DNA from: Sinonovacula constricta
Taxonomy: Eukaryota; Mollusca; Bivalvia; Cardiida; Solecurtidae
Direction: 5' to 3'
Assembly (NCBI GenBank): GCA_007844125.1
Contig: CM017569.1
Coordinates: 8,336,995-8,400,994, forward strand
Length of the DNA stretch: 64,000 nucleotides
The translations under genes and the position numbers were made by a program. Positions within the stretch are counted from its first letter, which is position 1, and each line of letters begins with the position of its first letter. Shown piece after piece: positions 3,621 to 46,282 of this stretch. A model generated the notes under the pieces. The model saw only the letters and a program-made list of their open reading frames with translations, did no database searches and was not told the DNA's origin.

Positions 3621-3626
3621 TTTATT
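3621..3626 (-). promoter_or_regulatory. Candidate poly(A) signal of SNRPG
   Basis: AATAAA on the minus strand, about 180 nt downstream of the SNRPG stop codon. A second possible signal lies near 3406-3411. The interval 3376-3803 is read as 3' UTR and flank; nothing else is visible in it. Confidence 0.45.
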
Positions 3627-3803
3627 CATCACTGGATACATTTTGCTGCCATAATGTGTAGACAACACCATAGTCCAATTCACTAACTGTAGGCTTTGCT
3701 TAAAAACAACAACCAGAATCTCCAGTTGTATTGGCATTGAAGTTACTTTCAGGTTCTTGTATGTTGAGATGAAGTGAGCTGCCTCTTTAAGTGTATTCCA
3801 CTA

Positions 3804-13336: not shown

Positions 13337-16300
13337 ATGTTTGTTGACGAGGCCCTTGAAGGCGTAAATTTCACATCTACTTGGAAAAAAGAAAGGTACA
13401 GCAATGGTCTTTCCTTAAAAAGTTATCCCACGGGTATGCGAATATTCAACCCTTGACTATTCGACCCTACTGCAGTAACCCTTCATTAATAAAATCGTTT
13501 GGGGTGTAGTGGATCACTAACGACATTTTCGCTGCATACGCATTAGAAACAAGTGTTTTCAAAATGCAGAATATGCATTTGCATTGCAAAATATGTCCTC
13601 TTTCCAAAAATGCTAACCATTTTAATCTCGAACGTATATATTTCCTTGCAAACGCTTCAGTTTTTGATATGTATCAATTTGGGTAGTTGCGGATCACTTT
13701 AGGGTAGAGCGGATCACGTGATAAACGTCACATAGGGATCGTCTTAAAGAACCTGAAACGATGTATTTGTCACAACAATTCATCTTTAATATGTTAATGG
13801 TATGTTTGATTTCAATGAAGCATACTCAGATCATATGGCTGCTCCCTCAAGTTGAGCCCCTTGTTTCCAGCAGCTGTCTGGTCTGCGTCTCTCTCATTCA
13901 CTATTTCGGTGTAACATCTGAACAAAGTATGGTAGTTTAAAAGTACACCATTATCACCCAAGAAAACTGCTGCTGCACGCACAGAACACACACACACACG
14001 CCCACACACACATACACACGAAGTCAATGGGGATGGAATATCAATATAAGACCAAATAACATTGAGTAAACTTTAATTGAAATCAGTGATTGGAATTAGA
14101 AGTTTTATTTTACAATGACTAAATCACATGCATTTTGTACTTTTTGTCAGGTCAATCATTAGTTTTCACAACAATCCTGGATTTTATTAGTATGAATTTA
14201 TTGGAATTTGAAAGGCGGGTAAGACAATGGGATGTGCAAGCAGTAAAACATTTGAAAAACAAACATGCATACAAGCTAACATAACAGATCTTAATAAGAA
14301 ATTTTCTGACCTATGGCTGCTTTATTTGCTTATTAGTACGAAATGTATGTGAAAGATAACAAGTATTTTTAATAACAAATAAGGCCAAATGCTTTAAGGG
14401 GTCTAGACACAGCTGGGTTTTTCTTTGATAAACATAATTTAAGTGCCATATATATTATCGATAGCATTTATAAATCAATTTGAAACCTTGTCCATTTAAT
14501 CATACCAGTTACATCCATACACCAGACATGAGTTGTGATATTTCCATAATTTTAATAATTTTAGGGGCAGTGCAAGACGTTAAGAGTTTTGATTGATACT
14601 GCATTTTCATTTAAAATAGTGTGCAACTCATGGGGCTAATCATTATTGTTTACCGACGATGCATGCGCATGCGCAATTTGATGAAACTTTAAGACCTTTT
14701 AATGGAATAAAGTCTACCAAAAATGTAAAGCAGTGTTCTCCAGAAGCACCGGCGGTATCGCCTGATACTTAAGAAATGAGCGCCGGCTACTTTCTCAAAA
14801 AAACAAACAAAAAATTTTCACCGAAAAAATAAAACGGTTTTGCAGAAACCGTTAATACATCGACAAAAGTATCGACGAAACACTTCCAAGATGTTATTGT
14901 TTTACTGCGCATCCGTTTGCGCAGGTTGGATGCAGACAGTACGTATGGTTTCCAAATGATGCCGAAATTCATAAACTGAGCATTCGTCTTTCTTCGACAT
15001 TTTCTGCCAAACTGGTAATGACAAAGTCGTGTGTATCCGTGAAAAATGCATATACAGTAGGCCTAAGCTATAAATAGATGTTTCGTCTGCATTCTTCGCA
15101 AAATATACGTATATTAGCCTCTGAAATGCCACCAAAAAGGAAATAAAAAATGAAATTCAAACAAATCAGAGAAAAATGTCAGATTTTTGGACGAAAGGTA
15201 ATATGTACACTTCGATATTGAATGATTGCATGCAGGTTATTTTCAGTTTTACTTCAATGAAATTATATTTTATACAAATAGCCATCATATCTATGCCGGC
15301 CATACCCCACCCATCCAGCAATACTGAAAATTTGAAATCGATCTTTTCCTTAAAATAAGTAACTAAAATCTGTCCCCACTTTTAAGAAAACAAATTAATT
15401 TGATGATTTTGAAAGTAAAGAATGATACTGTATAATTGAAGAAACATATACATGTACTTGGAGCAGAGAGTGTAGACCCCCAAATATATCACTTTTATTT
15501 CAAAAGTTGCTTAAAAACTTGCAGTATTTTACAATCAAATCAGGGTTATAAAACCTATTTAATCTCCAACCATCATCTTACTTTGCAGTATGATGTTATA
15601 GAATTCAGAGTTACAGTTACATGAGTTGACCAGGTTGTAACTGCGAACTTTGGTTTCTGATTTTATTTGTAATCACTTATACATTCTGCAAAATGGTCCT
15701 TTGAAGTGGTCAAATTCCAATTTGAATTTACAAAACTAAAACTTGTAATTAAAACTTGTCATTAAATTTCCAGGGACGGATTCTGAATGGAGTTGAGTTT
15801 GATGACTCTGATTTTTAAACTGTCATTTAATAAAAGTGATAAATTTTGAACAATGGTTTTGCTTTTGTATAAAAATGAAGCTTTTAAAAGACAACAATAT
15901 CGCTTTAAAATGCACCAAAATGCACCATTCTGCACCGTAAAAACAAAAGAATTTCAGGGAAAGGCCCTCGGCCCCCTAGCCGGAGGGGAAACTCTTCCCG
16001 CAGCCCCCCCTCGCCGCGAACCTGGCCGCTTTGCGGCTTGACATATGATAATGCAGCCTGCTACTTTAAAAAAATAGCCTGCTACTTTTTATTTTCTGGA
16101 GAACACTGGTAAAGACAAAGGCAAATCATTAAAAGCAAACCAAAACCTCTCCTCAACAATTTCCTATGAAATGATATAAAATGTACACCAAATGCCACTG
16201 ACTAGATCATATGTGAACACTAACTACTTAACATTTTGTAAATATTGCACAAATATAATTGTCACCGGTGCTTCATGTCTTGTTTACATGTAGATTGTAC

Positions 16301-19300
16301 TATAGTCCGTTTTGTTATTGTCCGTCTCGTTATTGTTAGATAGTTTGAGACATATAGTCTGTATGTCCTCCGTAAGGTCTGTGCATCTGTCTGGGTCTGT
16401 TCTGCGTGATGCACGATGTGGCGAAACTTGTAAAACCTGTTCTTGTCCTTCTGTATGTCTTCATATATGTTAATCGTGAGAGTGAGATTTTGTACGAGAG
16501 TTGGGAGTTTTCTTTTAAAATCTTAAAACCACATTCATTCATTCCACCCGCCTCTCACCATATGACAACAAATACTTAGTTGGTTTATACTGTTAGTTTT
16601 GCAATAAACTAATATAGTACCAGTTCTGTTTGGTAAGTTAAGTAGACCCATTATTTCAATTAGTGAAATGATGTATTATGTATTTAACTTGTATTGTTTG
16701 AATTGGTCTATTTTTACTTTGCAATGTGTGAATATTTGCATTGTTAAATGATGAATTGATATATTTTAGCCAACTATGGCAGTGTTTGATAAGTGTCTGT
16801 ATTATGGATATATTTTAAATTACAGGTTCTTGTGTATGTAATAAAATACTAAACCGTATACGGACTGGTCAAGTCAATTTGCCCACCACGACCCGTAACA
16901 TAATAATACGGATTGAACACTAAGAAAAGCCATGTATTTCAACATACATTAAACATTTTAGTACTTTTGAGATCAATTTTTGATACCTAAAAGAGGTTGC
17001 ATACCTTATGCAGTGTTAGTTGTAAACAGTTAACTTCATATATCACAAATATTTATCACAGCATATTAGGTGTATGATTTTAAGGGATTGTAAATGATAA
17101 ATAAAGCAGTGAATCTGTTTGGCATAAAACATGACAGGAACCAAGTCACAAATCTGTATATCTATGAGCAAACAAAAAAATTATTTCTTTAAACAGTTAT
17201 TCCTATTCTGGCCGAGAATTTGTAAATTGAGTTGCCCTTTTTTCTCTTCACCAGCCAAGAACTGCAGATTTTCCAATAGATACATTGTCTTTTTCGATGA
17301 GCAAAATAGCTCTCCGGACATGCACTGTCTTCCCAGGTGAAAGGAATTTCTTCTCGATGGTTTTGACATTTTTTACAGCCAGACTTAATCTTATTTCATA
17401 AAGCAGCCTTTTTATTTAGTTGTCTAAGCATTTTGTTTTAAAAAAAAAAGAGATGATAATGATAAGGAGAAGGACTATAGATATGCCAGTGTATATTGTT
17501 CAACCCCCCCCCCCCCATCTATGTCGAAACATTAAACATATCAAAAACAGTTATTTATATCACATCAAATTCATATTTTTCATACATAGATACATCATAT
17601 CATCAGCATTTTAAAGGTTATTCCAAAACTGGTACACCAAATGTAAGAATAATGAGACTGATTATGGTATCATGTCATAAATCCATAGGTTGTGGTATTA
17701 TATATATTATAAGATATTTCAAGTTGATACTGTCTCCATATGGCTGAAAAATTGTTTGTTGGATGCTTATATAATTTGTTACAATAGTGATATGATGGTG
17801 ATATGATGAGAATGATGATAGTAGTAATCATGATTAGCAGCTTATACTGATGGAGTTAAACACAGCTAACATAATTGCATAGAACGTCATAATGAGGATG
17901 ATGAAGTGGAACAAGAGGTGCACACCGACTAGAAATCCATGAAATAACTTAACTGAATAACATAGAATGGGTTAATAAGTTAGGGTGAAACTTTGCGATA
18001 TGTTTGACAGATCGTATTCATGTTCACTAATGAGACAGCCCCCTTAATTTAATGATCCGTAATACCCTAAAATATGTGCGTTCTCTTTTCAGCTCACTCA
18101 TCAATTAACACACGTCCAAAGAATAAACAATTTCTTGTGGTGTTAAAGGACATATACCCCCATCAATTGATGCCATTGGTTTAATCAATTACCCTATATT
18201 GCTGGAAAATACGCTGTTGATTTACACTTTCATTTTTGTGTTTTACCGCAGAAATGTCAACTTCCGGTTACCTCGGTTTCGTTACGCCATCATTTTCGGT
18301 TATCAAACACTGCTAGGCTGAAAATTTCACCGTGTAAATCCTATTGAGACATCTCTTTTTCTAATGATATGCTTTTTATTTGGTTTAATCAACAAAAGTA
18401 GTAAAAATATCAAGCTCAGATTTGGCTGATCCGCAATACCCTAAGATCTGCTACACCCCAAACAACTGTATTTAATAATTATAATAAGACAACCCAGAGT
18501 TTGCGTTAGTTAAAAGTTTAACTGTGTCCAAGGCAAGTAAAGGAAAAGTTGCGTCCCAGCCATAATTCACCAGCCACATTTTGGGGTATTTTTTGTGCTT
18601 TTTATATGTGAGTTTTAGTGTGACTGATCAATCGTATTGTAAAAAAATTTAAAAATGATTTCACTGTGGGAGACATTATGAACGCATGCTTTTTCGTTTT
18701 TGATATAATGATATAAACACATACCTCTATTGAGCACCATTGCATCTACCACCAGTTTGTAATATTTTTTGTAGATCATTAGAAGACGCTATTACACAGA
18801 CAGGAGCATTAGCTGTTTATGACCAGGCCGTCCAGTCTTACAAGTGTGTGGATGAAGGGGTAGGTTTGTGGGAGACCCATTGGCCAGGCCCTTAACTGGC
18901 TTCACAACATAAGCATCTAAATCATCATAAAATATGCGCTAAACTTACTACAAAACATTACATTTTCTGTGAATTATGTCATGAATAAAGTATTTCAGAT
19001 ATTTGTTTAAGTTCATCTGAAAGTTCTCTTCTAGCTAAATTTTTACATAATTTATACTAAGATCAAATTAGTATTTTAAGTATAATATTCTTAAGGTGGT
19101 ATCTGATATTTTACCTATATGACATATATGTAACCATATTTTACCTCTGTTTTATGTTTTGGAGAATTTTGGTATAATATATCCATTAACTTATAATTCA
19201 GTCTAAGTAAACACAATTTTAATCTTATGTCAGTTGTAAGACAGTACAAATTGAAAAAAAATCCTCAAGTAATAATGATTTAATTTAGATTGTTTAGTGT

Positions 19301-22300
19301 TAGATACCACCTTTTAACTCCACATATTTATTTCATTGTTTGTTGGACAGTCTCCATGCAGATTAACATAAAATAATTGAAAGAAACTTCTTTCAGGTCC
19401 AGACAGATGAAGAGACCAAGAAGAAACTACGTCTAGCAGAGGACCGCAGTGGGCATCTGGGGGAGTTCCTTCGCCGTATCGAGCCTTATGTTGTTAAACA
19501 GCTCAAGACAAATCTGAATAGCAGAGCTTTTGATGGTAACAAACACTAAAATTTGATAAAAAAAGACATGTGTCACCTGGCGGTACTACAATGTTTAGAT
19601 TTTATATGGAGAAGGATGTAGTAATCACAGAATCCACAATTTGCGATTTCAATTCTCTTTTATTTGCTCGGCAACTCGTTTGGCTTAATGTTTTTATTTC
19701 TACATAGTTCTGAACTCTCTCTTGTAATTTTCACTTTCTTTCCTTCCATCACTTATTATTCTCTTAAATTATAACTTTTCCTCCATGTCCTATCTCAATC
19801 CTTCTCTCTCTCCCCCCTGCATTTCTCTTCTCTTCTGCCTCTGATAACTGACTAACTGACTGACTTAAACTAGTTAAATGAGGGTCTACTTGCCCTGTTT
19901 ATGGCTTTTTCATGACCCCGCCATGTTGCCCATGCATGGCTTAAATTTTGCATTCCAAATATGTTGTCTAAAGTGAGCCCTACATAGTTTATGTACCCAT
20001 TTAAAAAAAGAATGGTTTGATTTTTGTAATCATTGACCTTAAGGGGGAGTGAGCTGGTAATGAGTGACTTCAACTCCCCAATTTATGGCTCGCTGCCTTG
20101 ACACTAGGGTCTAGTGATGTTGGTTTTCTGTATTGTTTACCATGAAAACAGGCTTACAGTTAGACTGCATGACAGCCCTCACACAATGCTGTTTTTCAGA
20201 TATTAAATAATATTCTAAACTTAAATTTTGGTTATTTTTTTTTGTAACATGTTTAACTTAAGAGCTGATTAAAACCATCATCAAGATATTAAATCATTGA
20301 AAACATAAAGTTTATCAATAATCATGTTTTTTCTTATGGATTATACAGCACAATTAGGCCAATCTGTTCATCTAATCTAACATCTGGTTGAGCAATTTTG
20401 AAACATCATGTGTTATATACCATAATTCCCACTTAAAGGTATATGTCTGTCAGGAACTAAGTGATATTTAAACATCCGTCGACAGCTGATGCCAAATTTG
20501 CTAGTACAGTTATGTGTGATGGGGTAGTCAGTTGTGCATGTTTGATCAGATATAGCTTTTATCAAATAGAGTAGTTAGTTGTGCCTGTGTGATCGGAAAC
20601 TGTAAGAACTACAGCATTGTTATTAATGTTCCCGCTTAGACAAATTATGTTGATAGTATTGAAAGCTAGTCTTTTCTTGTTTTTCTCTGCATTTTCTGGA
20701 CAGTTTGAAAAAAAGGAAATAAGGCTTGCCATTTATTTCAACAGCTTCAAAAGAGACAACAAAACTCCTGTTTAGCATGATTTGTGTGATTACAGAACTG
20801 TCCAAAGCAACAGATATAAACAATTATGGCTGACTTTATCATGTGTCTGGTTTTTGACACCACATTTACATGTATGAATATTTGCAGAAATCAATTTTGT
20901 GAAAATGGAAATATGCGACATATTTGTTATAAAAAACTTGGCTTTTCACTTTCTGATAGGTAACATACAATAAAATGTTACATTTAGCAAGGAATATGCC
21001 CATTTCTTTTTTACTTAAGTTAAGTGCATTGTTGTATGTCATGGCTAGGTATATTTAACTGCCTTTTTATTTTGTTGATCAGAGACATTGAGCCAGAGTC
21101 TGAAAGTGGGAAAATGTTCTATGACATTTGATCTGGCTTTAATATTGGATCTTAAAGCTGCCACATTTAAGGCTAAAAGAATTGGAGATTTGTTTGGCCA
21201 GCATTTTTTCCTAATATGGAAGTTTGTTTTTTATTTATTTTTACTTTTACCAAATGCTCGTAAAGGGTAGTCAAATAATCAGATATATCCAGCTATGTAT
21301 AAGAGTAAAAAAAATCAAATGTGACCAGACAAAAAAACTCAAGTTGGTAGAGTTGTCTAAACAAATGTTTATTTTTATTCCTAATGCTCCACAATGGTTT
21401 TAGATTTATTCTTAAAGTTAAAGTATTTTTTCTTGTCCCACAGCCATTTTAAAAATTTATTATTTTAGCCTCTATCATTCTTCAAAAACCAAGCACTATT
21501 CTTCTATTATTGTTTCTAAGCTGCATATACAGTGTCAATGATGTTTTCTGTCTAGATTACAACCTTGACTTAGATGATGATACTGCTGCTGTCACCTGTA
21601 TGCGATCCCTCCACAGCCCAGACCTTCTGGGCAAGTTCCAGGTGACCAGTCTGTCTTGGAACTCCACTGGATCTGTGATAGCTGCCTCGTATCCTTGCTG
21701 GTTTTTGATTCAACCAAATTAAACATTATAAAAAATTCATTTTTTTAACTTCTAGTCACATCCCCATAAGGATTTCCAGTAGCAGCAGCAGCAACACCAC
21801 CACCTCTACAACTACTATCACACCACCAAGAATGAGCAAAAGGGACTAGCATTACTATGACATAAACTTAACTAGTTTTTTGCCACAGTTGACATCATTG
21901 TTATATTATTAACTATTATATAAATAATAAATACAGTAACATTGCCTGATGAATCTTGCATGGCCACCTGTGCTCCTCATTGTTCTCCCATTTTTAGCCT
22001 TGACTGCTATCCTAGGTACGGCCACATGGAGCACGAGGATTGGTGCACGCACCGCACAGCCCTTTGTACCTGGAACCTGGACAGGGCAACTGTCAAGGAG
22101 GACAAGCCAGACACCAACATAGAGCTGCCAAGTTGTCTCATGTGTATCGCATTCCATCCTAAAAACCCAGCTATCATAGCTGGTGGAACTTTCAACGGTA
22201 TGGCTATTTGTGTTACTTGGTTTATGGGTTTTGTTTGTTGATAATAGTCTTATATGTGTGTGTGTATATATGTGCTTGAGTGTCTGTACATATTTGTATA

Positions 22301-25300
22301 AATATCTGCCACAAAAAAATTGCAAATTTTAATGTAAGGACACTATTAATTACTGTTTAAATCATTGTTGAAAAAAGGATACACAACTGCAGATAATACC
22401 TGGAGCTCATATTGATGTTTGGCTAACAAGTTACAGTAATTCAGGGCATACTTTCAGAACCTTTATTCATTTAAATGTGATGTCTGTTATTATACTGCCT
22501 CTTTGTAAAGCTTGATTCCAAATAACATGATGTGCCATTCTCCTGTTTTTGCTGTATCAGGTGAGGTAATGCTGTGGGACCTGAGCCGCGAGGACGACAT
22601 GCTGCTGGCGTCATCAGGGCTGGGTGATGATGCCCATCAGGAGCCCGTATCAAAGGTGTGCTGGATCACGGATGCTAAGGGCAAGAAGATCTATGTAAGT
22701 GCTACATGGTCCCTCATGCTGCCATCTTGTATCTGGTAGTGTCAAACATTGCTTACCTGCTCTAAACTATTTATTACTTTACTTCACTAAAATACTTATG
22801 TATAAAATGAAAGTTCTGTTATATACATACTCAATCTTCATGATTGCCTGTTTTCTACAATCTACCTATACATGAAAAAACAGTTCTATCTGCAATATAA
22901 CTGGTGCTATAGGCATGGGTATCTATTTATGTATTTATTAGATGGACTTACTTTAGGTTTGTTATTATCTGGTTTACAGACTTTTATTGTTATTAAGTGT
23001 AAATAGAGTAAGAAAATGTGTAATTAATTGATGGATTCAGCACATTGGCATGTAATATATACCAGTAATAATGTTACCTGTAGACAAAATACATTTACAT
23101 TTTTACAGTAATGTACATGATTTTATTTAAAACTTGTTACTTGTGCTTGATGTTATTTTACATCAAACATTAAATTACGATAAGAAAATATATTAATATA
23201 TTAGTGTACATGATGTGTCCATGTTTGTTTTTTATTAATTTAAAATATTAACCCATTCTTGAAAGTATATTCACTTTCTACATATTGATAAATGAATTAA
23301 ATATGTGTACATTGGTGAAATAAGCAGCACAGTTGATGAAACCATGTCATGTTATGTGATAAGGGTGTTTGAAAATGCTATTTACTGACTACAGTCCAGT
23401 TCAGATCATCCATATTTGTACAGTTGATGAAACCATGTCATGTTATGTGATAAGGGTGTTTGAAAATGCTATCTACTGACTACAGTCCAGTTCAGATCAT
23501 CCATATTTGTACAGTTGATGAAACCATGTCATGTTATGTGATAAGGGTGTTTGAAAATGCTATCTACTGACTACAGTCCAGTTCAGATCATCCATATTTG
23601 TACAGTTGATGAAACCATGTCATGTTATGTGATAAGGGTGTTTGAAAATGCTATCTACTGACTACAGTCCAGTTCAGATCATCCATATTCGTACAGTTGA
23701 TGAAACCATGTCATGTTATGTGATAAGGGTGTTTGAAAATGCTATCTACTGACTACAGTCCAGTTCAGATCATCCATGTTTGTACAGTTGATGAGCACCA
23801 GCAGTGATGGAAAGATTCTACAGTGGAAGATAGACAGGAAGGCACAGAAGCTGTTACTAAGGGATGGGTAAGACCACTTGATTACTATCATTAGAAGCAT
23901 TTCTTTGTTCATCATTTATAAAAGAATATCCTAAGGATTTTTTGTTAAACTTTGTGGGGAATTTGTCTTGTTTCACTCAACTGCTAGAGATGTGTGGACT
24001 TTGACCTTGCTTGTTAATAAGAAGCATGTAATAAAATTAACTGGTACTTTAAAATGTTTGCCTAACATTTCTCTTAACCACAAATTGTATGTTTAGACTA
24101 CTTATTGTATTTTATAGAATATAAATTAATTCAATAGACTAATGCACCTACTGAATTTTACTCAATATTACGATCCTAACCATTAGTAGGTAGAAGTAGT
24201 TGCTGATCATCTGGAGGGTGTAGCAAGTGTTACAGAGAGCCTAACATCTTGATGGTTGGTCACTAGGCTAGTGATATCTATGTCAGCAGTTTATCTATAC
24301 AATGAAATAACATTATTGTGTGCATGTCAGGTTTGTACTGATGACACAAAGCCTGCCACGGAAGATGAAGGTGAAGGGTGTGCGTGGAGACAAGGAGATG
24401 GGAGTCACCTGCATCTCCTACAATTGTGAGGATAAAGACATGTTCCTCATCGGCTCTGAGGCAGGGGCCATCTTCAAGTGTTCCATGAACCACCAAGGCC
24501 CGCCAGCAGGCAGTGAGTCTCTGACATTCATTGATATATAGTAGAATAATAAGATTTGGTTTGATCCATACTTTGCTTCAATAAGAAATACACAGCATAA
24601 TTTGTATGCAAGAAGCCCACTTGACTGTAATTTATGTACAGCATGTGACTAGCATGAAATTTTGCCTTAAATAGGGCAAAATCCAAATGCCTTGACAAAA
24701 TATTTTCGCTATGATTATTGTAAGGAGTAAGTAACAAATTACCAGACTATTAAATGGAACAAATTAATATGAGAATTGGCCATTTCTTGAAAAAATGTTT
24801 TCCACTGAATAATAGAATCACAGGAAATGTCTTCTATTATAAAATATTAAACAAAACCTATCCAGTTGAACATTGTTTTAGTAAAGAAGTCTTGATGTAA
24901 AAAGAGTAACCACATCATCTTTGTTATTTTTAGGTATTTTTTCTTGTCACTATGATGATTCTTTCTGTTAAATTTGTAAATATTTTATAAATTTAAGTAG
25001 CTGTCATTTTCAAAAAAATACTTTATTCCTATTATAAGCTACAAGTGTTTTTCTTTTATTTCTAAAGGAAAGAACCAACATATTGTGTCCCTTTGCAATA
25101 ATATACCATGCTATTTCAGGTAATATCCAGTCGTCAGTACCCCTGTGTTCACCTGTGACATTCACCTACCACCCCCAGCATGGACCTGTGTATGCTCTAG
25201 ACTGCTCCCCCTTCCACAGAAACGCATTCATCAGTGCAGGAATGGACCAGTGTATCAGAATATACAGTATCTTACAGGTCAGTGGCTGAATGGGCTATAT

Positions 25301-28300
25301 CATACTGTACAGTATCTTACAGGTCAGTGGCTTATTGAGCTATATCATACTGTACAGTATCTTACAGGTCAGTGGCTGACTGGGCTATATCATACTGTAC
25401 AGTATCTTACAGGTCAGAGGCTGACAGGGCTATATCATACTGTACAGTATCTTACAGGTCAGTGGCTGACTGAGCTATATCAGGCTGTACAGTATCTTAC
25501 AGGTCAGTGGCTGACTGGGCTATATCATACTGTACAGTATCTTACAGGTCAGTGGCTGACTGGGCTATATCATACTGTACAGTATCTTACAGGTCAGTGG
25601 CTAATTGAGCTATATCATACTGTACAGTATCTTACAGGCCAGTGGCTGACTGGGCTATAGCATACTGTACAATATCTTACAGGTCAGTGGCTGACAGGGC
25701 TATATTCCACTGTATAGTATCTTACAGGCCAGTGGCTGACTGGGCTATATCATACTGTACAGTATCTTACAGGCCAGTGACTAACTGAGCTATATCATAC
25801 TGTACAGTATCTTACAGGTCAGTGACTGACTGGGCTATATTCCACTGTACAGTATCTTACAGGCCAGTGACTAACTGAGCTATATCATACTGTACAGTAT
25901 CTTACAGGCCAGTGGCTGACTGGGCTATATTCCACTGTACAGTATCTTACAGGCCAGTGACTAACTGAGCTATATCATACTGTACAGTATCTTACAGGCC
26001 AGTGACTGACTGGGCTATATCATGCTGTACAGTATCTTACAGGCCAGTGACTAACTGAGCTATATCATACTGTACAGTATCTTACAGGCCAGTGACTAAC
26101 TGAGCTATATCATACTGTACAGTATCTTACAGGTCAGTGACTGACTGGGCTATATTCCACTGTACAGTATCTTACAGGCCAGTGACTAACTGAGCTATAT
26201 CATACTGTACAGTATCTTACAGGCCAGTGGCTGACTGGGCTATATTCCACTGTACAGTATCTTACAGGCCAGTGACTAACTGAGCTATATCATACTGTAC
26301 AGTATCTTACAGGTCAGTGACTGACTGGGCTATATTCCACTGTACAGTATCTTACAGGCCAGTGACTAACTGAGCTATATCATACTGTACAGTATCTTAC
26401 AGGCCTGTGGCTGACGGGGCTATATCATACTGTACAGTATCTTACAGGCCAGTGGCTGACTGGGCTATATCAGACTGTACAGTATCTTACAGGCCAGTGG
26501 CTGACTGAGCTATATCAAACAGTACAGTATCTTACAGGCCAGTGGCTGACTGGGATATATCATACTGTACAGTATCTTACAGGTCAGTGGCTGACTGGGC
26601 TATATCATACTGTACAGTATCTTACAGGTCAGTGGCTGACTGGGCTATATCAAACAGTACAGTATCTTACAGGCCAGTGGCTGACTGGGCTATATCATAC
26701 TGTACAGTATCTTACAGGTCAGAGGCTGACAGGGCTATATCATACTGTACAGTATCTTACAGGTCAGTGGCTGACTGGGCTATATCAAACAGTACAGTAT
26801 CTTACAGGCCAGTGGCTGACTGGGCTATATCATACTGTACAGTATCTTACAGGTCAGTGGCTGACTGGGCTATATCAAACAGTACAGTATCTTACAGGCC
26901 AGTGGCTGACTGGGCTATATCATACTGTACAGTATCTTACAGGTCAGTGGCTGACTGGGCTATATCAAACAGTACAGTATCTTACAGGCCAGTGGCTGAC
27001 GGGGCTATATCATACTGTACAGTATCTTACAGGCCAGTGGCTGACTGGGCTATATCATACTGTACAGTATCTTACAGGCCAGTGGCTGACAGGGCTATAT
27101 CATACTGTACAGTATCTTACAGGTCAGTGGCTGACAGGGCTATATCATACTGTACAGTATCTTACAGGTCAGTGGCTGACTGGGCTATATCTTACTGTAC
27201 AGTATCTTACAGGCCAGTGGCTGACTGGGCTATATCATACTGTACAGTATCTTACAGGCCAGTGGCTGACTGGGCTATATCATACTGTACAGTATCTTAC
27301 AGGTCAGTGGCTGACTGGGCTATATCAAACAGTACAGTATCTTACAGGCCAGTGGCTGACTGGGCTATATCATACTGTACAGTATCTTACAGGTCAGTGG
27401 CTGACAGGGCTATATCATACTGTACAGTATCTTACAGGTCAGTGGCTGACTGGGCTATATCAAACAGTACAGTATCTTACAGGCCAGTGGCTGACTGGGC
27501 TATATCATACTGTACAGTATCTTACAGGCCAGTGGCTGACTGGGATATATCATACTGTACAGTATCTTACAGGTCAGTGGCTGACTGGGCTATATCATAC
27601 TGTACAGTATCTTACAGGTCAGAGGCTGACAGGGCTATATCATACTGTACAGTATCTTACAGGCCAGTGGCTGACTGGGATATATCATACTGTACAGTAT
27701 CTTACAGGTCAGTGGCTGACTGGGCTATATCATACTGTACAGTATCTTACAGGTCAGTGGCTGACTGGGCTATATCAGGCTGTACAGTATCTTACAGGTC
27801 AGTGGCTGACTGGGCTATATCATACTGTACAGTATCTTACAGGTCAGTGGCTGACTGGGCTATATCACACTGTACAGTATCTTACAGGTCAGTGGCTAAT
27901 TGAGCTATATCATACTGTACAGTATCTTACAGGCCAGTGGCTGACTGGGCTATAGCATACTGTACAATATCTTACAGGTCAGTGGCTGACAGGGCTATAT
28001 TCCACTGTACAGTATCTTACAGGCCAGTGACTGACTGAGCTATATCATACTGTACAGTATCTTACAGGCCTGTGGCTGACGGGGCTATATCATACTGTAC
28101 AGTATCTTACAGGCCAGTGGCTGACTGGGCTATATCAGACTGTACAGTATCTTACAGGCCAGTGGCTGACTGAGCTATATCATACTGTACAGTATCTTAC
28201 AGGCCTGTGGCTGACGGGGCTATATCATACTGTACAGTATCTTACAGGCCAGTGACTGACTGAGCTATATCATACTGTACAGTATCTTACAGGCCTGTGG

Positions 28301-31300
28301 CTGACGGGGCTATATCATACTGTACAGTATCTTACAGGCCAGTGACTGACTGGGCTTTATCATACTGTGCAGTATCTTACAGGCCAGTGGCTGACTGGGC
28401 TATATCATACTGTACAGTATTTTACAGGCCAGTGGCTGACTGGGCTATATCATACTGTACAGTATCTTACAGGTCAGTGGCTGACTGAGCTATGTCATAC
28501 TGTACAGTATCTTACAGGCCTGTGGCTGACGGGGCTATATCATACTGTACAGTATCTTACAGGCCAGTGGCTGACTGGGCTTTATCATACTGTGCAGTAT
28601 CTTACAGGCCAGTGGCTGACTGGGCTATATCATACTGTACAGTATTTTACAGGCCAGTGGCTGACTGGGCTATATCATACTGTACAGTATCTTACAGGTC
28701 AGTGGCTGACTGAGCTATGTCATACTGTACAGTATCTTACAGGCCAGTGGCTGACTGGGCTATATCATACTGTACAGTATCTTACAGGTCAGTGGCTAAT
28801 TGAGCTATATCAGACTGTACAGTATCTTACAGGCCAGTGGCTGACTGGGCTATATCATACTGTACAGTATCTTACAGGTCAGTGGCTAATTGAGCTATAT
28901 CAGACTGTACAGTATCTTACAGGCCAGTGGCTGACTGAGCTATATCAGACTGTACAGTATCTTACAGGCCAGTGGCTGACTGGGCTATATCAGACTGTAC
29001 AGTATCTTACAGGCCAGTGGCTGACTGGGCTATATCAGACTGTACAGTATCTTACAGGCCAGTGGCTGACTGAGCTATATCAGACTGTACAGTATCTTAC
29101 AGGCCAGTGGCTGACTGGGCTATATCATACTGTACAGTATCTTACAGGTCAGTGGCTGACTGGGCTATATCATACTGTACAGTATCTTACAGGCCAGTGG
29201 CTGACTGAGCTATATCATACTGTACAGTATCTTACAGGTCAGTGGCTGACTGGGCTATATCAGGCTGTACAGTATCTTACAGGTCAGTGGCTAATTGAGC
29301 TATATCTGACTGTACAGTATCTGACAGGTCAGTGGCTAATTGAGCTATATCATACTGTACAGTATTTTACAGGTCAGTGACTGACAGGGCTATATTCCAC
29401 TGTACAGTATCTTACAGGTTAGTGGCTGACAGGGCTATATCATACTGTACAGTATCTTACAGGTCAGTGGCTAATTGAGCTATATCAGACTGTACAGTAT
29501 CTTACAGGTCAGTGGACAGGGCTATATCATACTGTACAATATCTTACAGGTCAGTGGCTAATTGAGCTATATCAGACTGTACAGTATCTTACAGGTCAGT
29601 GGCTGACTGGGCTATATCATACTGTACAGTATCTTACAGGTCCGTGTCTAATTGAGCTATATCGGGCTGTACAGTATTTTACAGGTCAGTGTCTAATTGA
29701 GCTATATCGGGCTGTACAGTATCTTACAGGTCAGTGTCTAATTGAGCTATATCAGGCTGTACAGTATCTTACAGGTCAGTGTCTAATTAAGCTATATTAG
29801 ACTGTACAATATCTTACAGGTCAGTGACTAATTGAGCTATATCAGACGGTACAGTATATTACAGGTCAGTGACTAATTGAGCTATATCAGACTGTACAGT
29901 ATCGTACAGGTCAGTGACTAATTGAGCTATATCAGGCTGTACAGTATCTTACAGGTCAGTGACTAATTGAGCTATATCAGACTTGACAGTATACTACAGA
30001 TTTGTGGCTAACTGAGCTGTAGCCGGCTGTATCTTAAATGACAGTAATACAGAAGTTATGGTCAAATTCCCCAAACAGGGGTAAGAGTTTGTAACATTTG
30101 TTTGATATGTGCTGTTACCACCTTTAAAATGTTTAGGGATTCTTTCTTGTATCTTTTAGCAGAATAGCCTTTAAAATATGCCCTTATTTTAAGTCAAAAG
30201 CTCATATAGACAAAACAATTACACAACATAATATATTGTTGTGTTCTTGTATAATATTATAAATTAATATTGTTATAATAATTTAACCAATTTCATGTTT
30301 ATTTTGTACACTATTAAGTAAAATATCAGACTCTCTCACACACAGCTGCCTGATCAGGGCTTTTCTGCACAATTAGTATTGTAGGTCAGAGTGTTAACTG
30401 GATACATGGAGACTAACATTGATTGTTTGATATATACTGTTTTGTCCATTACTTTTTTAATTAGCTGTGGGTATATGTTCAATGCCATATTCTTTCGTGC
30501 CATAAAGTATACAGTTTTCAACAGGTCATCAGCTTTTGTCACAACAGCTGCCAGGGACTTCTGCAATGAGTTTGTTATTTGTACAGTCACTTGTAATGTA
30601 TCTGACTTTTCTGAAAGTCTGTGCTTGCATTGTTGGTCATAAATGCATTTTCCTTTGTCTCAATGCAGAGTTGACAGCGCATTGATATTTGGTTGATAAC
30701 AAGGTCAAAATCTTTTACTAACCAATCTTTAAACTGTGGGTCTTTAATCCAGTTTTCCTGAAAATTTCTGGCATGAGACTTTTTCTTTTTTGCTGGGGTT
30801 GCCATTTTTCCAATATCAACAATGACATTCTGTATATACTACTGAGAGACTGATTCTGCAATGATTACACTTATTCTGCTATGCAGCTTTAAGTGATAAT
30901 ATTGCAACCAGCCAAGGTTGGTACTAACTACATAATTAAACTAGTAACCCAGAAATAAACAGATTTAGCTACGGCCACTTTTGGTTTCCAATCAGAATTT
31001 CATTGCATTATAAGATTTGATTATGCCATAAGCAAGAACACTGTGTTGACAAATGCTTGAATGTTACCAGTCAGTTAGTTAGTAAATCATTGTTTAGTCA
31101 CTTTAACAATAATCATACATGAACAGAACAGAGAAAATACAATGTCTTGACAAATGTTAGAATGTTACTTGTGCATTATCCAGGCCCAGCCAGTGTTAAC
31201 TATAGAGCCAGGTGAGGGTTATATCACCAGTGTCCAGTGGTCTCCAGTCCGAGCCTCAGTGTTTGCAGCAACTACCCAGTCAGGCCACCTCCTCATCTAT

Positions 31301-34300
31301 GATCTCAAAAATGGCCACACCATACCTGTTCACAAGATACAGGCATGTCCACAGAAAGATCCTGTATTCTCGTGTCAGTTCAACTCACAACAGTAAGTAA
31401 TCTTTTAATTTTATTATTTTTTGTTCTATTTGTGTGTGTTCTTCTATTACTTTCTGAAGAAAAGCTTGACATTCATACTTTAAAATCCAGATGGCCTTTT
31501 TGTGACATCAAACATGTGAATGCATGAAATGATCCATGTGTATACACATTTGTATGCAGTTGTACCCTTTTTTGTTGCAGAGATAAAAACAAATATCATA
31601 ACAAATGACAACAACAAAACAGTTTCATTTGTACATGTTAATATGAGGATCAAATAAAATATGCTGATGTTCATTGTTGTACACCTGTCAAAGATGGGTC
31701 ATATTTTGAGAACACCCATGGCGGACTGGGGGGGAGGGGGGGGGGGGGGGGCGTGCGGACAGGTGGCGTCCACAGTGATGTCTACTCTCTAAATCAAATG
31801 GTTGCTGTCCAATCTTCATGAAACTTGGGGATATGACTGGAACTCATTGTGCAAGCAAATGTCCCAAGAAAGCAGGCTTATCTGTATTGTGGCTTTGGTT
31901 GTGTGACCACTTGCATTAATAATGCTTGAACATCAGTGTGATAAAATTAAAAATGGTTCTTAAGAATGTAATCTATCTCACCAATATTTCAACTATTGCC
32001 TTTACTGCAGTATTACTCTTTCAAGTTAAATAAATCTAAATATTATATGCTCCATGTTGTGACACATTTCTACTTTGTAAATGTTTTAATGGTAATGGGA
32101 TGCAGAAAGCCAAATTGTTGACACCTTTTACATTTTACCAGTCCATGTTTGACTTTATGCATACATTTTATTAAAACTGTTTCTTGTAAAAATAATTACC
32201 TCTGGTTTTATTATAGTTCAAAAGGTTGCAAATTAAAATACCTTTTTTAAGGATTATGGACCCTAAAGAGAATTGTCAAGAAATTGATGGAGCCTTACTT
32301 TATAATAACTGTTGGCCAAAGTGGAAAATTCCAAAAGAACCTTTAAAACAGAAATACTCTAACAGACACTGACAGTTACACTGAACAGTGCAAATATGAT
32401 ACGACATAGATTATCGGATTGTACATTTTATAACAAAATCACTTCACAAACTTCTGTAATCACATACAGTAAAATTGCATTACTTCTTGTAATATTCTCA
32501 AAGTTTTGGCATCACTCTTTCTAGCACTCTTTTTGTATTATTAACACAATATTGCCCTTTTGTCTTCCTACAAGTAAATCTGTTCTGTAAACCATCTTCA
32601 CCCTCTCTGACATCTTAAGATATGATAATTTTTTCATTTTATCATCCACCAAGCATGCTTGCTGCATGTTCAGAGCTGCATTATTAGTCAAATATTTACG
32701 TCACAGTGGAAACCCCCCCACCCTCACGTGTCAAAAATTTACTTAAAAAAGATATAATGTACTGTTGAATGACATATTACCCAACATAAGTCAATATTTA
32801 CTGATTCATTAGGGTCATTCACGAATTAATTAATTGAACTTTCTATTTGAAACTGTAACAGCATACATACAGCATAGATCACATACTATGTATGTTCTTA
32901 GTATAAACAATTACACAATAATTATATGTTCTGTTTTAGTATACTGGCTGTGGGGAGTGCTTCGTGATATATATACATCTATATATGTTTTCTATATTCT
33001 TATAGGTTAATAGGACTGTTCTTTTGGCTGTGGGGTACACCAAGAGGTATATCCATATTTATAATACATATTTTGTATTAAGTTGTAGTCTATTGGCTGT
33101 GTGGTACACCATAGGATATAACTATATTTTCAATATGCGGTTCTGTATTTTATTATAGGCCCATTCTACTGGCTGTATGAGATACCAAGTGGTATTTCCA
33201 TATCTAAAATAAATATTTTGTGTTCCCTTGTAGGCCCAGTCTACTGGCTGTAGAGGAATCAACAGGCTATATCCACATCTACATTAATGCTATGTATTCT
33301 GTTGTAGGCCCAGTCTACTGGCTGTAGAGCAATCAACAGGCTATATCCATATCCACATTAATGCTATGTATTCTGTTGTAGGCCCAGTCCTCTGGCTGTA
33401 GGGGATGCCACAGGCTATATCCACATCTACATTAATGCTATGTATTCTGTTGTAGGCCCAGTCTACTGGCTGTTGGGGATTCAACAGGCTATTTCCATAT
33501 CCACATTAATGCTATGTATTCTGTTGTAGGCCCAGTCTACTGGCTGTTGGGGATTCAACAGGCTATATCCATATCCACATTAATGCTATGTATTCTGTTG
33601 TAGGCCCAGTTTACTGGCTGTAGAGCAATCAACAGGCTATATCCACATCTACATTAATGCTATGTATTCTGTTGTAGGCCCAGTTTACTGGCTGTAGAAC
33701 AATCAACAGGCTATATCCACATCTACATTAATGCTATGTATTCTGTTGTAGGCCCAGTTTACTGGCTGTAGAGCAATCAACAGGCTATATCCATATCCAC
33801 ATTAATGCTATGTATTCTGTTGTAGGCCCAGTCTACTGGCTGTAGGGGATTCAACAGGCTATATCCATATCCACATTAATGCTATGTATTCTGTTGTAGG
33901 CCCAGTCTACTGGCTGTTGGGGATTCAACAGGCTATTTCCATATCCACATTAATGCTATGTATTCTGTTGTAGGCCCAGTCTACTGGCTGTTGGGGATTC
34001 AACAGGCTATATCCATATCCACATTAATGCTATGTATTCTGCTGTAGGCCCAGTCTACTGGCTGTTGGGGATTCAACAGGCTATATCCATATCCACATTA
34101 ATGCTATGTATTCTGTTATAGGCCCAGTCTACTGGCTGTTGGGGATTCAACAGGCTATATCCATATCCATATTAATGCTATGTATTCTGCTGTAGGCCCA
34201 GTCTACTGGCTGTTGGGGATTCAACAGGCTATATCCATATCAACATTAATGCTATGTATTCTGCTGTAGGCCTAGTCTACTGGCTGTTGGGGATTCAACA

Positions 34301-35139
34301 GGCTATATCCATATCCACATTAATGCTATGTATTCTGTTGTAGGCCCAGTCTACTCTCTGTAGGAAATAATACAGGATATATTCACATCTACATTAATGC
34401 TATGTATTCTGTTGTAGGCCTAGTCTACTGTCTGTAGGGGATGCCACAGGCTATATCCACATCTACATTAATGCTATGTATTCTGTTGTAGGCCCAGCCT
34501 ACTGTCTGTAGGGGATGCCACAGGCTATATCCACATCTACATTAATGCTATGTATTCTGTTGTAGGCCCAGTCTACTGTCTGTAGGGGATGCCACAGGCT
34601 ATATCCACATCTACATTAATGCTATGTACTCTGTTGTAGGCCCAGTCTACTGTCTGTAGGGGATGCCACAGGCTATATCCACATCTACATTAATGCTATG
34701 TATTCTGTTGTAGGCCCAGTCTACTGTCTGTAGGGGATGCCACAGGCTATATCCACATCTACATTAATGCTATGTATTCTGTTGTAGGCCCAGTCTACTG
34801 TCTGTAGGGGATGCCACAGGCTATATCCACATCTACATTAATGCTATGTATTCTGTTGTAGGCCCAGTTTACTGGCTGTAGGGGATGCCACAGGCTATAT
34901 CCACATCTACATTAATGTTACGTATTCTGTTACAGGCCCAGTCTACTGGCTGTGGGGGATGCCACAGGCTATATCCATATCCACATTAATGCTATGTATT
35001 CTGTTGTAGGCCCAGTCTACTGTCTGTAGGGGATGCCACAGGCTATATCCACATCTACAAGCTCAGCAGCAACTTGCGAGCACCTGCCACAAAGGAGCTG
35101 GAGTACATTGGCAATCTAGTCACAGTAACACAAGAGTGA
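13337..35139 (+). CDS. DYNC2I2: Cytoplasmic dynein 2 intermediate chain 2 (WD repeat-containing protein 34), eleven exons
   Basis: Coding exons: 13337-13395, 18775-18859, 19397-19535, 21556-21688, 22016-22197, 22561-22694, 23788-23867, 24331-24512, 25120-25277, 31184-31392, 35010-35139. The sum is 1491 nt, 496 aa; human WDR34 is 536 aa. Frames join exactly, with GT donors and AG acceptors. Key blocks: MFVDEALEGV at the start; a VQTDEE segment (residues 49-54) at the place of human VQTE, probably the light-chain-binding region; FLRRIEPYVVKQL; then seven WD40 blades from about residue 105 (VTSLSWNSTGSVIAASYG, GGTFNGEVMLWDLSR, SSDGKILQWK, PVYALDCSPFHRNAFISAG, SVQWSPVRASVFAA, FSCQFNSQQPSLLSVGDATG). 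It partners DYNC2I1 in the dynein-2 motor that drives retrograde intraflagellar transport in cilia. The N-terminus is 59 coding nt in exon 1, 5.4 kb upstream of exon 2. Exon 7 appears one residue shorter than the human alignment at its start. Tandem arrays abut exons 7, 9 and 11. Confidence 0.95.
13986..14020. repeat. CA-type microsatellite
   Basis: Imperfect (CA)n run, 'acacacacacacacg' and 'cacacacacatacacac', in DYNC2I2 intron 1. It accounts for the Val/Cys-rich minus-strand open frame there, which is not a gene. Confidence 0.8.
14731..16108. mobile_element. Non-autonomous hAT-type DNA transposon
   Basis: Perfect 15-bp terminal inverted repeats CAGTGTTCTCCAGAA (14731-14745) and TTCTGGAGAACACTG (16094-16108), flanked by direct GTAAAG at 14725-14730 and 16109-16114 (6-bp target duplication). 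CAGTG termini are characteristic of hAT elements. Subterminal regions share 'gccggctacttt' (14782) and 'gcctgctacttt' (16046, 16076). A GC-rich block at 15957-16035 stands out from the AT-rich interior. No transposase motif is seen in any frame. It lies in DYNC2I2 intron 1. Confidence 0.75.
16115..18774. other. DYNC2I2 intron 1, distal part: no gene seen
   Basis: AT-rich, with a 13-nt poly-C run at 17504-17516 and the right-hand inverted motifs described for 13497-18463. No coding exon is recognised; open frames at 17131-17369 overlap on both strands without recognisable domains. Confidence 0.4.
19536..21555. other. DYNC2I2 intron 3: no gene seen
   Basis: Intron between exons 3 and 4. It is AT-rich, with pyrimidine-rich tracts around 19690-19850. 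No array, transposon end or exon is recognised. Confidence 0.4.
23329..23783 (+). repeat. Five-copy 91-bp tandem array spanning the exon 7 acceptor of DYNC2I2
   Basis: Units begin with ACAGTTGATGA at 23329, 23420, 23511, 23602 and 23693, each exactly 91 bp apart and almost identical. A sixth ACAGTTGATGA at 23784 is the real 3' splice site: CAG then exon 7 TTGATGAGC. Every unit therefore carries a copy of the acceptor (tttgtacag) plus about 7 nt of the exon start, with 83-84 nt of intron. Units differ only by rare substitutions (e.g. 'tttact' against 'tctact' in copy 1, 'attcgt' in the last), so the expansion is recent. 91 is not a multiple of 3. Confidence 0.92.
25263..30034 (+). repeat. About 105-copy 45-bp tandem array spanning the exon 9 donor of DYNC2I2
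   Basis: The unit consists of the last 15 nt of exon 9 (TACAGTATCTTACAG), then the first 30 nt of intron 9 (GTCAGTGGCTGA...). The first unit contains the genuine donor at 25277/25278. The 45-bp period is kept almost without indel over 4.7 kb; one 42-bp unit lies near 29505. Units vary mainly at the donor second base (CAG|GTCAGT or CAG|GCCAGT), at GGCTGA/GACTAA and at CATAC/CAGAC/TTCCAC. A five-unit (225-bp) higher-order duplication is seen at 28356 against 28581. Unit junctions create a perfect 14-bp palindrome, ATACTGTACAGTAT. Copies decay after about 29650. Because 45 is a multiple of 3, two frames stay open for hundreds of codons; those are not genes. Confidence 0.95.
30354..30805 (-). pseudogene. 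hAT/ZMYM-like transposase N-terminal fragment
   Basis: The minus-strand frame begins MATPAKKKKSHARNFQENW and continues with KDWLVKDFDLVINQISMRCQ, then LCIETKENAF. This is the 'FQENW...W...C.LC' opening of zinc-finger hAT-type transposases related to ZNF862/ZMYM-like proteins. A frame change near 30590 leads to TNSLQKSLAAVVTKADDLLK and a hydrophilic stretch, then a stop at 30354. No terminal inverted repeats were found around it. It lies antisense in DYNC2I2 intron 9, just after the 45-bp array, and is broken. Confidence 0.5.
31393..32939. other. DYNC2I2 intron 10, proximal part: no gene; poly-G tract
   Basis: AT-rich intron. An interrupted poly-G run occupies 31728-31751 (7 G, one A, 16 G), a potential quadruplex and a sequencing trouble spot. 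It is followed by 'ttcatgaaacttgggg', of the type seen in molluscan dispersed repeats. No exon is recognised. Confidence 0.45.
32940..35009 (+). repeat. 74-bp tandem array spanning the exon 11 acceptor of DYNC2I2
   Basis: The unit is the first 49 nt of the last exon (GCCCAGTCTACTG... to CACATCTAC) plus the last 25 nt of intron 10 (ATTAATGCTATG...TTGTAG). From 33234 to the real exon at 35010 is 1776 bp, exactly 24 units. Upstream are about four decayed copies beginning at 32940, 33006, 33089 and 33159 with spacings of 66, 83, 70 and 75 bp. Units nearest the exon are most like it (TCTGTAGGGGATGCCACAGG); middle units share a TTGGGGATTCAACAGG variant. Each copy has a usable TAG acceptor. 74 is not a multiple of 3, and read-through into a second unit meets an in-frame TAG. 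Confidence 0.94.
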
Positions 35140-35660
35140 CTATGCTAGTGGGCCAAATATAGACTGCACATTTGAGATATTATATAGAGTTTTAACAGTC
35201 TGGAATGTCTTTTTTAATTTCTTGTTTTTTTTTATGTACTGACTTTTTACAAAAAAAAGTGTCAGTGTGGTTTGGTTACATTTTATTTTCTGTAGTGCCA
35301 GGTAGTGTATCAGATTCATGTAAAGAACACCTTTATCAGGGTGTAAAGCATTGAATATCCTTTAATATACCAGGCATCATGTAACATCCCCCACAATGAT
35401 TATACTAGGTTGTAAATTTTGACTTTTCTAATTAACCTGAAATCAAATGTTTGTCTCTTTATGTGAACTTCTGGAACTCTTTGGCTGAAATGATCATGGC
35501 TATCATTGCTATTGAAAAAGTTTTCATGCTAGGTTTTCATGAATTGATATCAATCTGTGATATTCATATTATCTAATTTATTATGTGTATATATAAAAAA
35601 TAAAGGTCATAATATCATTAGTTAGCTTTTGTTTTGTGCCATTATAAAAAAATAAAAGAT
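35140..35660 (+). promoter_or_regulatory. DYNC2I2 3' UTR with poly(A) signals
   Basis: After the stop codon TGA at 35137-35139 there are AATAAA hexamers at 35599-35604 and 35651-35656, placing the likely cleavage site near 35620-35680. Confidence 0.55.
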
Positions 35661-45600: not shown

Positions 45601-46267
45601 CAGTTTGTAAGGATTATAGGAAAGTGATCACTTCCACAAAGGTCATCAGTGTACATCCCTAAGTGTAATCTAAATATGCAGAGGGGTGACACAATGTTAG
45701 GTCTAACGATGAATAATGTCCAGTTGCGGGGTGCAAGTATGTTGGCTTTTTATTATTAAACAGACAAATGTCAGTTATGGGCAATAAAGTTTTCTATCGT
45801 CTTGCCCATATTATTAAAGTCACAACATCCCCATAGCGGGTTATGACCATTGTAGTCTCCAACGAAGTATAGATGGAGTAGGCAACTGGTTAATAAGATT
45901 ATCTAAATCATCTTTAGATACATTTGAATTCGGTGGAAGATAGACAGAGCAAATAGTTACAACTTTATGTAGGGTTTACACGAATAGCAACAGCTTGTAT
46001 GTTTGTGTCAAGTTCGACTTGAGAGTGTGGCAATTTGGAGTTGACAATTATTGTCCATCCTCCAGATGCCCTCTCGCAAGCTGTATGTATATGATGATAA
46101 CAAGTATAACCCTTAAAATTGAATTTATCAGAGTCTTTAAGAAAGATTTCCTGAAGACAAAGCACAGCAGGATTTAGTGTAGATAATAGTATGAGTATTT
46201 CATTGTAACTGGCCATAAGACCTCGACAGTTCCACTGAATGATTCTATTATTCATGGGATTATTCAA
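42690..46267 (-). pseudogene. LINE ORF2: endonuclease - reverse transcriptase - RNase H, frameshifted
   Basis: The endonuclease starts at 46267 with IIQWNCRGLMAS and LCLQE; the SDHFPI motif lies near 45630. The reverse transcriptase spans about 45000-43800, with SYRPIALTS, AVFFDLEKAYDTAW and FLGVIFDRKL. The YxDD catalytic box near 44260 is disrupted: the frame shifts there and the Asp pair is not readable in a single frame. RNase H lies at about 43300-42800 (IIFSDSLTVLQSI, FCWLPSHVGIRGNEDADRDA). The end has a C-x2-C / H / C pattern around 42780-42700. Frame changes near 45960, 45690, 45560, 44700 and 44260 make it inactive. ORF2 begins 16 nt after ORF1 ends. Confidence 0.85.
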
Positions 46268-46282
46268 CTTAATTCTTGTAGA

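What the first reader, a model, noticed from the sequence alone, without database searches (positions are those of the whole stretch)
23329..35009. Three independent minisatellites in one gene, each built from a splice junction
Seen directly: in DYNC2I2 the acceptor of exon 7 (91-bp unit, 5 copies), the donor of exon 9 (45-bp unit, about 105 copies) and the acceptor of exon 11 (74-bp unit, 24 copies plus older ones) have each been amplified. In all three the unit crosses the exon-intron boundary and the outermost copy is the functional splice site. Unit sequences are unrelated, so these are three separate events. Inference: duplications across a boundary stay neutral because one intact junction always remains, or something about this locus (splice-coupled R-loops, transcription-associated breaks, template switching) makes junctions prone to expansion. 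I know of no described class of splice-junction minisatellites.
Basis: partly seen in the sequence, partly recalled or inferred. Interest (0 to 1): 0.9.

Follow-up and report, generated by a model that had tools for sequence, protein, structure and literature searches.

The report
Three minisatellites grown from splice junctions
In one cilium gene (DYNC2I2) of what is likely a bivalve mollusc, three unrelated stretches of repeated DNA each copy a piece that crosses an exon-intron boundary (about 5, 105 and 25 copies), which would leave the message intact only if the cell splices at the one copy touching the exon, as is predicted here but untested in RNA.

Summary
Confirmed. The 11-exon DYNC2I2 (WDR34) gene holds three sequence-unrelated arrays: exon 7 acceptor (91 bp, 5 copies), exon 9 donor (45 bp, 105 copies), exon 11 acceptor (74 bp, 25 near-identical + 4 decayed). 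Each unit crosses the junction, with 7, 15 and 50 exonic nt. They are the gene's only large arrays; that the outermost copy is the functional one follows from geometry. New here: (i) the coding copy of exon 11 is identical to array copies 24, 26 and 27 but differs at 7 positions from its neighbour 29, implying array-exon exchange, including one amino-acid state; (ii) 53 of 105 exon 9 units carry AG|GT, a potential dual splice site, in a hairpin-forming unit; (iii) the most decayed copies of arrays 2 and 3 lie away from the exon. Best reading: junction-anchored minisatellites, likely tolerated because exon definition would pick the exon-proximal copy. Single cases are in print (human CBS 844ins68, IFI6, UBC), so the kind is known; three in one gene is a new variant. 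Random placement gives about 7e-4 for all three, but post hoc, and no genome-wide test or RNA was available.

The parts
13337..13395 (+). DYNC2I2 coding exon 1 (MFVDEALEGVNFTSTWKKE-)
   Evidence: pattern found, sequence read, in frame
18775..22694 (+). DYNC2I2 exons 2-6 (18775-18859, 19397-19535, 21556-21688, 22016-22197, 22561-22694); no junction array
   Evidence: junction-duplication scan
23329..23794 (+). Array 1: 91-bp unit, 5 copies + 11-nt partial copy (ACAGTTGATGA), covering the acceptor of exon 7; exonic part TTGATGA (7 nt)
23788..23867 (+). exon 7; its acceptor is the last (partial) copy of array 1; each of the 5 upstream copies used instead gives a premature stop at codon 253
24331..24512 (+). 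exon 8
25120..25277 (+). exon 9; donor CAG|GTCAGT lies in copy 1 of array 2; reading past it meets a TGA inside copy 1 (...YSILQVSG*), so later donors (copies 2, 3, 5 computed) end the protein at 387 aa
25263..30029 (+). Array 2: 45-bp quasi-palindromic unit, 105 copies + a decayed 106th; 15 nt exonic + 30 nt intronic; AG in 105/105, GT donor in 53/105, GC in 52/105
31184..31392 (+). exon 10
32922..33218 (+). four decayed copies of the 74-bp unit at the distal (5') end of array 3
   Evidence: three of the four lie outside the masked core and were found again by an HMM (E 3e-10 and 1.4e-4)
33219..35059 (+). Array 3: 74-bp unit, 24 full copies + the functional terminal copy; 50 nt exonic + 24 nt intronic
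35010..35139 (+). exon 11 (last coding exon, ends with the stop codon); its first 50 nt are array unit

Best explanation
Three separate tandem duplications that crossed exon-intron boundaries of DYNC2I2 appear to have grown into minisatellites inside the introns, and they are likely tolerated because exon definition would select only the copy next to the exon. Shown in sequence: each array extends only into the intron; only the exon-adjacent copy is contiguous with the rest of its exon; the tested uses of other copies bring an early stop (arrays 1 and 2) or an altered C-terminus (array 3); the exon-adjacent copy of exon 11 is identical to non-neighbouring array copies but not to its neighbour. 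Inferred: that identity reflects exchange between array and exon; purifying selection keeps the terminal copy intact, so it would act as a lasting master unit, close enough in sequence to keep re-seeding the array by slippage or unequal exchange, while distal copies decay; an ordinary intronic array has no such protected unit. In array 2 the hairpin-forming unit probably also helped amplification. Because exchange reaches coding DNA, the array can probably also write into the protein.
For: Frame: 5 of 5 upstream exon 7 acceptors stop at codon 253; for exon 9 the stop lies inside copy 1 itself, and the three later donors computed (copies 2, 3, 5 of 104) give it; 24 of 24 upstream exon 11 acceptors change the tail. 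Anchoring: in array 3 the four most diverged copies (17-25 differences from the functional one) are the four farthest from the exon; Spearman -0.70 over 28 copies (copies are not independent). In array 2 the 8 copies next to exon 9 differ from consensus at 0-3 positions, the last 8 of 105 at 6-8. Exchange: the functional copy equals copies 24, 26 and 27 over 65 columns but differs at 7 from neighbour 29 and 2 from 28; its serine codon is shared with copies 21-27, whereas 17 of 24 other copies and 11 of 12 relatives have alanine. The 18 residues of exon 11 overlapped by the array depart from the six closest relatives at 5 of 10 columns invariant among them, against 10 of 228 elsewhere (Fisher P 1e-4); as a window it ranks 2 of 459, tied with the overlapping next window (12 relatives aligned, picked by hand from the 120 listed). 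Precedent for the exon-proximal choice, and a proposal of conversion from the duplicate into the exon: CBS 844ins68 (PMC2630376, abstract and passages). Array 2 hairpin: DNA z -3.4 (GT form) and -5.0 (GC form) for two units.
Against: No RNA: use of any copy is untested. 46 of 105 exon 9 units, the functional one included, carry the same 12-nt donor context, and it is the gene's best donor by consensus count, so position alone would have to decide. Predicted RNA structure does not single out the real donor: accessibility rank 26 of 53 GT copies. Array 2 shows only a weak trend over its whole length (rho 0.17, P 0.08); array 1 has too few variants to show one. Of the five exon 11 departures, three are in 24 of 24 array copies, one in 12 and the serine in 7, so most of the change may predate the visible array; against all 12 relatives the excess is not significant (1 of 4 invariant columns against 4 of 132, P 0.14; residues unseen in relatives 1 of 18 against 35 of 450, P 1.0). 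The direction of the alanine/serine exchange is unknown. Splice signals are not uniformly kept in array 2 (52 of 105 units are GC). Chance placement is not excluded, since the gene was chosen after the fact.
Confidence: 0.6

Rival explanations
1. Chance: minisatellites are common in this genome and start at random; in one gene among thousands three of them happen to span junctions. (This concerns how they arose and does not exclude the tolerance part of the best explanation.)
For: A single random 45-91 bp segment spans a junction here with probability 0.06-0.12, product 7e-4 for three; with many genes and post hoc choice some such gene is expected if genes with three arrays are not rare. The units share no detectable sequence.
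Against: The gene has no large purely intronic array although introns are about 90% of its collapsed length; other tandem rows in it are short (periods up to 20 bp, about 2-5 copies, besides a poly-G run and sub-patterns of the arrays).
Confidence: 0.4
2. Array 2 is a ladder of recursive (dual-specific) splice sites: its AG|GT units would let the intron be removed in steps of 45-bp multiples with no trace in the mRNA.
For: AG precedes the donor position in 105 of 105 units and AG|GT is kept in 53; a branch-point-like word (CTGAC, CTAAC or CTAAT; motif recalled) is present in 102 of 105 units. AGGT dual sites in tandem repeats are used in human UBC (PMC10809524).
Against: Pyrimidine content before the AG is somewhat lower than at the gene's 10 real acceptors (mean 0.57 against 0.63, real range 0.53-0.76); 52 of 105 units have GC; the hairpin covers the site. 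No RNA.
Confidence: 0.12
3. Array 3 supplies alternative last-exon acceptors and so C-terminal isoforms.
For: 24 of 24 upstream acceptors would keep the 16 overlapped codons open and end in one of two lengths, 484 aa (15 copies) or 502 aa (9 copies); in a last exon such stops would escape nonsense-mediated decay (general knowledge). Variable sites among copies sit at third codon positions in 12 of 21 cases (P 0.0026), synonymous alleles 14 against 8 expected (P 0.008); the four decayed copies differ from consensus at 19, 7 and 24 first, second and third positions.
Against: The third-position excess rests on singletons: 6 of 13 sites when the minor allele is in two or more copies, 4 of 10 at four or more. 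No transcript evidence.
Confidence: 0.1
4. Something about splice junctions (co-transcriptional structure, breaks, AG/GT microhomology) raises the rate of tandem duplication there.
For: Three of three large arrays of the gene are at junctions; the array 2 unit is a strong quasi-palindrome and commoner units have stronger hairpins (rho -0.32, P 0.027, units not independent).
Against: Arrays 1 and 3 have no hairpin signal (z +1.3 and -0.5); no shared motif; 16 of 19 junctions tested show no clear duplication.
Confidence: 0.12
5. Assembly artefact.
For: No reads could be examined.
Against: Array 2 holds 48 distinct unit types in a structured order (a run of 5 consecutive units repeated at lag 7; in 300 permuted orders the longest run was 2 or 3), and decayed copies grade into unique flanks; a stuttered assembly would not be expected to give this.
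Confidence: 0.05

Closest known systems
[quoted passage not shown] PMC2630376, abstract and passages seen; the passage says splice 'donor' sites, while the work it cites is titled as 3' splice site selection)
   Same: duplication across the start of an exon; the copy next to the rest of the exon is used and normal mRNA results; gene conversion from the duplicate into the exon proposed
   Different: two copies, not 25; one junction; a human polymorphism
Human IFI6 (6-16) minisatellite that supplies multiple splice donors (Turri 1995; only the citation and a descriptive sentence in PMC4526556 seen; the paper is not held)
   Same: minisatellite at an exon's donor, with several units offering donors
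   Different: two of its downstream units are said to be used in real transcripts; here later units would bring a stop
UBC / dual-specific splice site tandem arrays (PMC10809524, abstract, Results and Discussion read)
   Same: tandem array with AGGT in many units; unit length a multiple of 3
   Different: UBC units are coding and kept or removed by splicing; here the units hold in-frame stops
CBS 31-bp VNTR (only a reference title seen, in PMC2630376; that it spans exon 13/intron 13 is recalled)
   Same: VNTR at a donor junction (recalled)
   Different: one array, fewer copies (recalled)
Intron gain by tandem duplication of AG/GY proto-splice sites (PMC2891723, passages seen)
   Same: tandem duplication creates donor-acceptor sets
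   Different: here the arrays lie in introns between exons that match relatives; whether these intron positions are old was not tested
Intronic minisatellites near alternative splicing (C. elegans CeRep25B, PMC4039745, abstract seen; earthworm metallothionein intron 1, PMC12783039, passages seen)
   Same: intronic minisatellites, linked to splicing in the worm
   Different: nothing I saw says that their units contain the gene's own splice junction

Membership tests
Junction-duplication alleles of the CBS 844ins68 type | duplicated segment contains intron end, AG and exon start | tested here: met
   arrays 1 and 3
Junction-duplication alleles of the CBS 844ins68 type | copy next to the rest of the exon is used in mRNA | not testable with these tools
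   no RNA; an intact frame demands it
Junction-duplication alleles of the CBS 844ins68 type | sequence exchange between duplicate and functional exon (proposed for CBS) | tested here: met
   array 3: functional copy identical to copies 24, 26, 27, 7 differences from neighbour 29; direction unknown; not testable for array 1
Multiple-donor minisatellite (IFI6 type) | repeat unit contains the donor and many units offer one | tested here: met
   53 GT and 52 GC among 105 units
Multiple-donor minisatellite (IFI6 type) | several units used as donors in transcripts | not testable with these tools
   later copies would give an early stop
Dual-specific splice site (UBC-type) tandem array | AGGT in every unit | tested here: not met
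   53 of 105 units
Dual-specific splice site (UBC-type) tandem array | units spliced to one another | not testable with these tools
   no RNA or lariat data
Minisatellite | head-to-tail units of tens of bases with variant copies | tested here: met
   91-98% matches, 0% indels

The most novel reading that the evidence does not exclude
Splice junctions seed a distinct class of minisatellite: purifying selection on the exon-adjacent copy preserves a master unit that keeps the array alive and in turn receives sequence from it, so an intronic repeat rewrites the edge of a coding exon; such arrays would be found genome-wide in this lineage above the number expected by chance.
Probability: 0.22. Interest if true: 0.8.

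Novelty: new variant of a known kind. Interest (0 to 1): 0.55.

Why it matters
It extends isolated human cases (CBS 844ins68, IFI6) to three independent arrays in one gene with up to 105 near-identical splice-site copies, giving a natural test of how the spliceosome picks one site among many alike (exon definition against first-come or recursive choice). It also points to a route by which a non-coding repeat could change a conserved protein through exchange with the exon edge. If junction arrays exceed chance genome-wide, repeat birth would be linked to gene structure.

Tried and rejected
Unmasked real donor: RNA accessibility of the functional exon 9 donor is middling (rank 26 of 53 GT copies; its hairpin is 17th weakest of 105); rejected. 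Hairpin covariation: pairing slightly above shuffles (P 0.02) among related units, not used as evidence of selection. Common motif or common origin of the units: none found. More exon sequence hidden in the exon 7 unit: no (P 0.25 and 0.28). Hidden duplications at other junctions: of 19 tested, the 16 without an array give P 0.022-0.95 (lowest the exon 3 donor at 19536, about what 16 tests would give, not followed); exon 1's donor was not tested. Filtering of all array variants through the functional copy: the exonic part of array 2 has fewer common variants (0 of 15 against 12 of 30 sites at six or more copies, P 0.004), but array 3 shows the reverse (10 of 50 exonic against 0 of 24 intronic at four or more, P 0.025) and array 2 has GC in half its units; not pressed. 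Array 2 sequence in other organisms: one hit, a low-complexity 314-aa protein (46% over 36%), set aside as unrelated (residues 1-300 of one open frame, only the 7,995 candidates sharing most words scored). Units elsewhere in the window: only the decayed array 3 copies; three weaker hits had E 0.086-0.92. Genome-wide test in this species: not possible; the genome search did not complete.
Full report
Gene and arrays. The plus strand holds a complete 11-exon DYNC2I2 (WDR34) coding sequence, 13337-35139, 496 aa. It matches human WDR34 in the PDB (E 1.1e-113) and mollusc proteins, the closest named being Dreissena polymorpha at 71%, so the organism is likely a bivalve. Exon numbers 7, 9 and 11 in the finding are right. 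TRF finds three large arrays in the gene, and a more permissive run over 18000-35400 adds only short rows.

Anatomy. Array 1: five 91-bp copies and an 11-nt partial copy ending inside exon 7; only 7 nt are exonic. Array 2: 105 copies of a 45-bp unit starting with the last 15 nt of exon 9, then a decayed 106th left out of the counts. Array 3: 24 copies of a 74-bp unit plus the terminal copy that forms the first 50 nt of exon 11, preceded by four decayed copies from 32922. Of 19 junctions tested (all but exon 1's donor), 16 carry no clear duplicate nearby; the three array junctions score 69, 90 and 115 against a maximum of 33 in 400 random control placements.

Independence and chance. The units are not detectably related (five of six comparisons P above 0.1, one P 0.04). 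If each array began as a random segment of its unit length in the collapsed gene, the chance that all three span one of 20 junctions is about 7e-4. This is post hoc for one gene. Neutrality of an intact outer copy does not by itself predict enrichment, since purely intronic arrays should be at least as neutral and introns are about 90% of the sequence.

Why they are survivable. In array 1 each of the 5 upstream acceptors brings a stop at codon 253. In array 2 a stop lies inside copy 1, so later donors read into it (copies 2, 3 and 5 computed). In array 3 all 24 upstream acceptors replace the C-terminal tail. The usable copy in each case is the one giving the shortest exon, which is what exon definition would choose (inference from general knowledge). 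The same outcome is reported for the two-copy human case CBS 844ins68 (PMC2630376, passages).

Array and exon exchange. The functional copy of exon 11 is identical to copies 24, 26 and 27 over 65 columns but differs from adjacent copies 28 and 29 at 2 and 7 positions. Its serine codon is shared with copies 21-27, while the other 17 of 24 copies and 11 of 12 relatives have alanine. I read this as exchange between coding and non-coding copies; direction is unknown. The 18 residues overlapped by the array form one of the two top windows of 459 for lineage-specific divergence (the two overlap), with 5 of 10 columns invariant among the six closest relatives changed, against 10 of 228 elsewhere (P 1e-4); against all 12 relatives the excess is not significant. 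Three of the five changes are in 24 of 24 array copies, so they may predate the visible array.

Polarity. In array 3 the four most diverged copies are the farthest from the exon. In array 2 the last eight copies are the most diverged and the first eight differ little from consensus, with only a weak trend over the whole length. I infer that selection on the exon-adjacent copy provides a protected master unit.

Array 2 specials. AG is present in 105 of 105 units, GT in 53 and GC in 52; the GC units lie in the interior (copies 9-88), with both ends all GT. The unit is a quasi-palindrome folding better than shuffles (single GT unit as RNA P 0.014), and GC units fold more strongly than GT units (mean -16.9 against -12.3 kcal/mol). 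Splicing from unit to unit as in human UBC (PMC10809524) is possible but untested.

Place among known things. Junction-spanning repeats are in print as single cases (CBS 844ins68, IFI6, UBC). The literature searches listed no gene with several junction minisatellites and no survey of them; I saw only the listed titles and abstract starts (1 of 1, 15 of 15, 15 of 8,140, 15 of 57, 15 of 1,419, 20 of 35, 4 of 4 and 10 of 394), and the library holds open-licence papers only. I rate this a new variant of a known kind.

Noticed in passing
33219-35009: Each of 24 upstream exon 11 acceptors would keep the overlapped codons open and end in one of two alternative tails (484 or 502 aa), stops that a last exon would hide from nonsense-mediated decay.
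   Followed up: partly
25263-30029: The 45-bp unit is a quasi-palindrome; GC-donor units form stronger hairpins and occupy only the interior of the array (copies 9-88).
   Followed up: partly
53384-53610: A further 56-bp x 4.1 minisatellite outside the gene; not checked against any exon boundary.
   Followed up: no
1940-5507: Tandem repeats of 116-146 bp in two places (1940-2558 and 4923-5507) with similar unit sequences.
   Followed up: no
7678-7929: hAT transposase C-terminal dimerisation fragment (PF05699, E 1.5e-9).
   Followed up: no
42786-46282: Minus-strand pieces of a likely non-LTR retrotransposon (RNase H PF00075, E 4.7e-9 at 42789-43373; 44708-45586 has no Pfam match); an endonuclease-like piece at 63040-63330 on the plus strand (PF14529, E 2.6e-8).
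   Followed up: no
37535-39754: Plus-strand open frames (200 and 402 aa) without a Pfam match, downstream of DYNC2I2.
   Followed up: no
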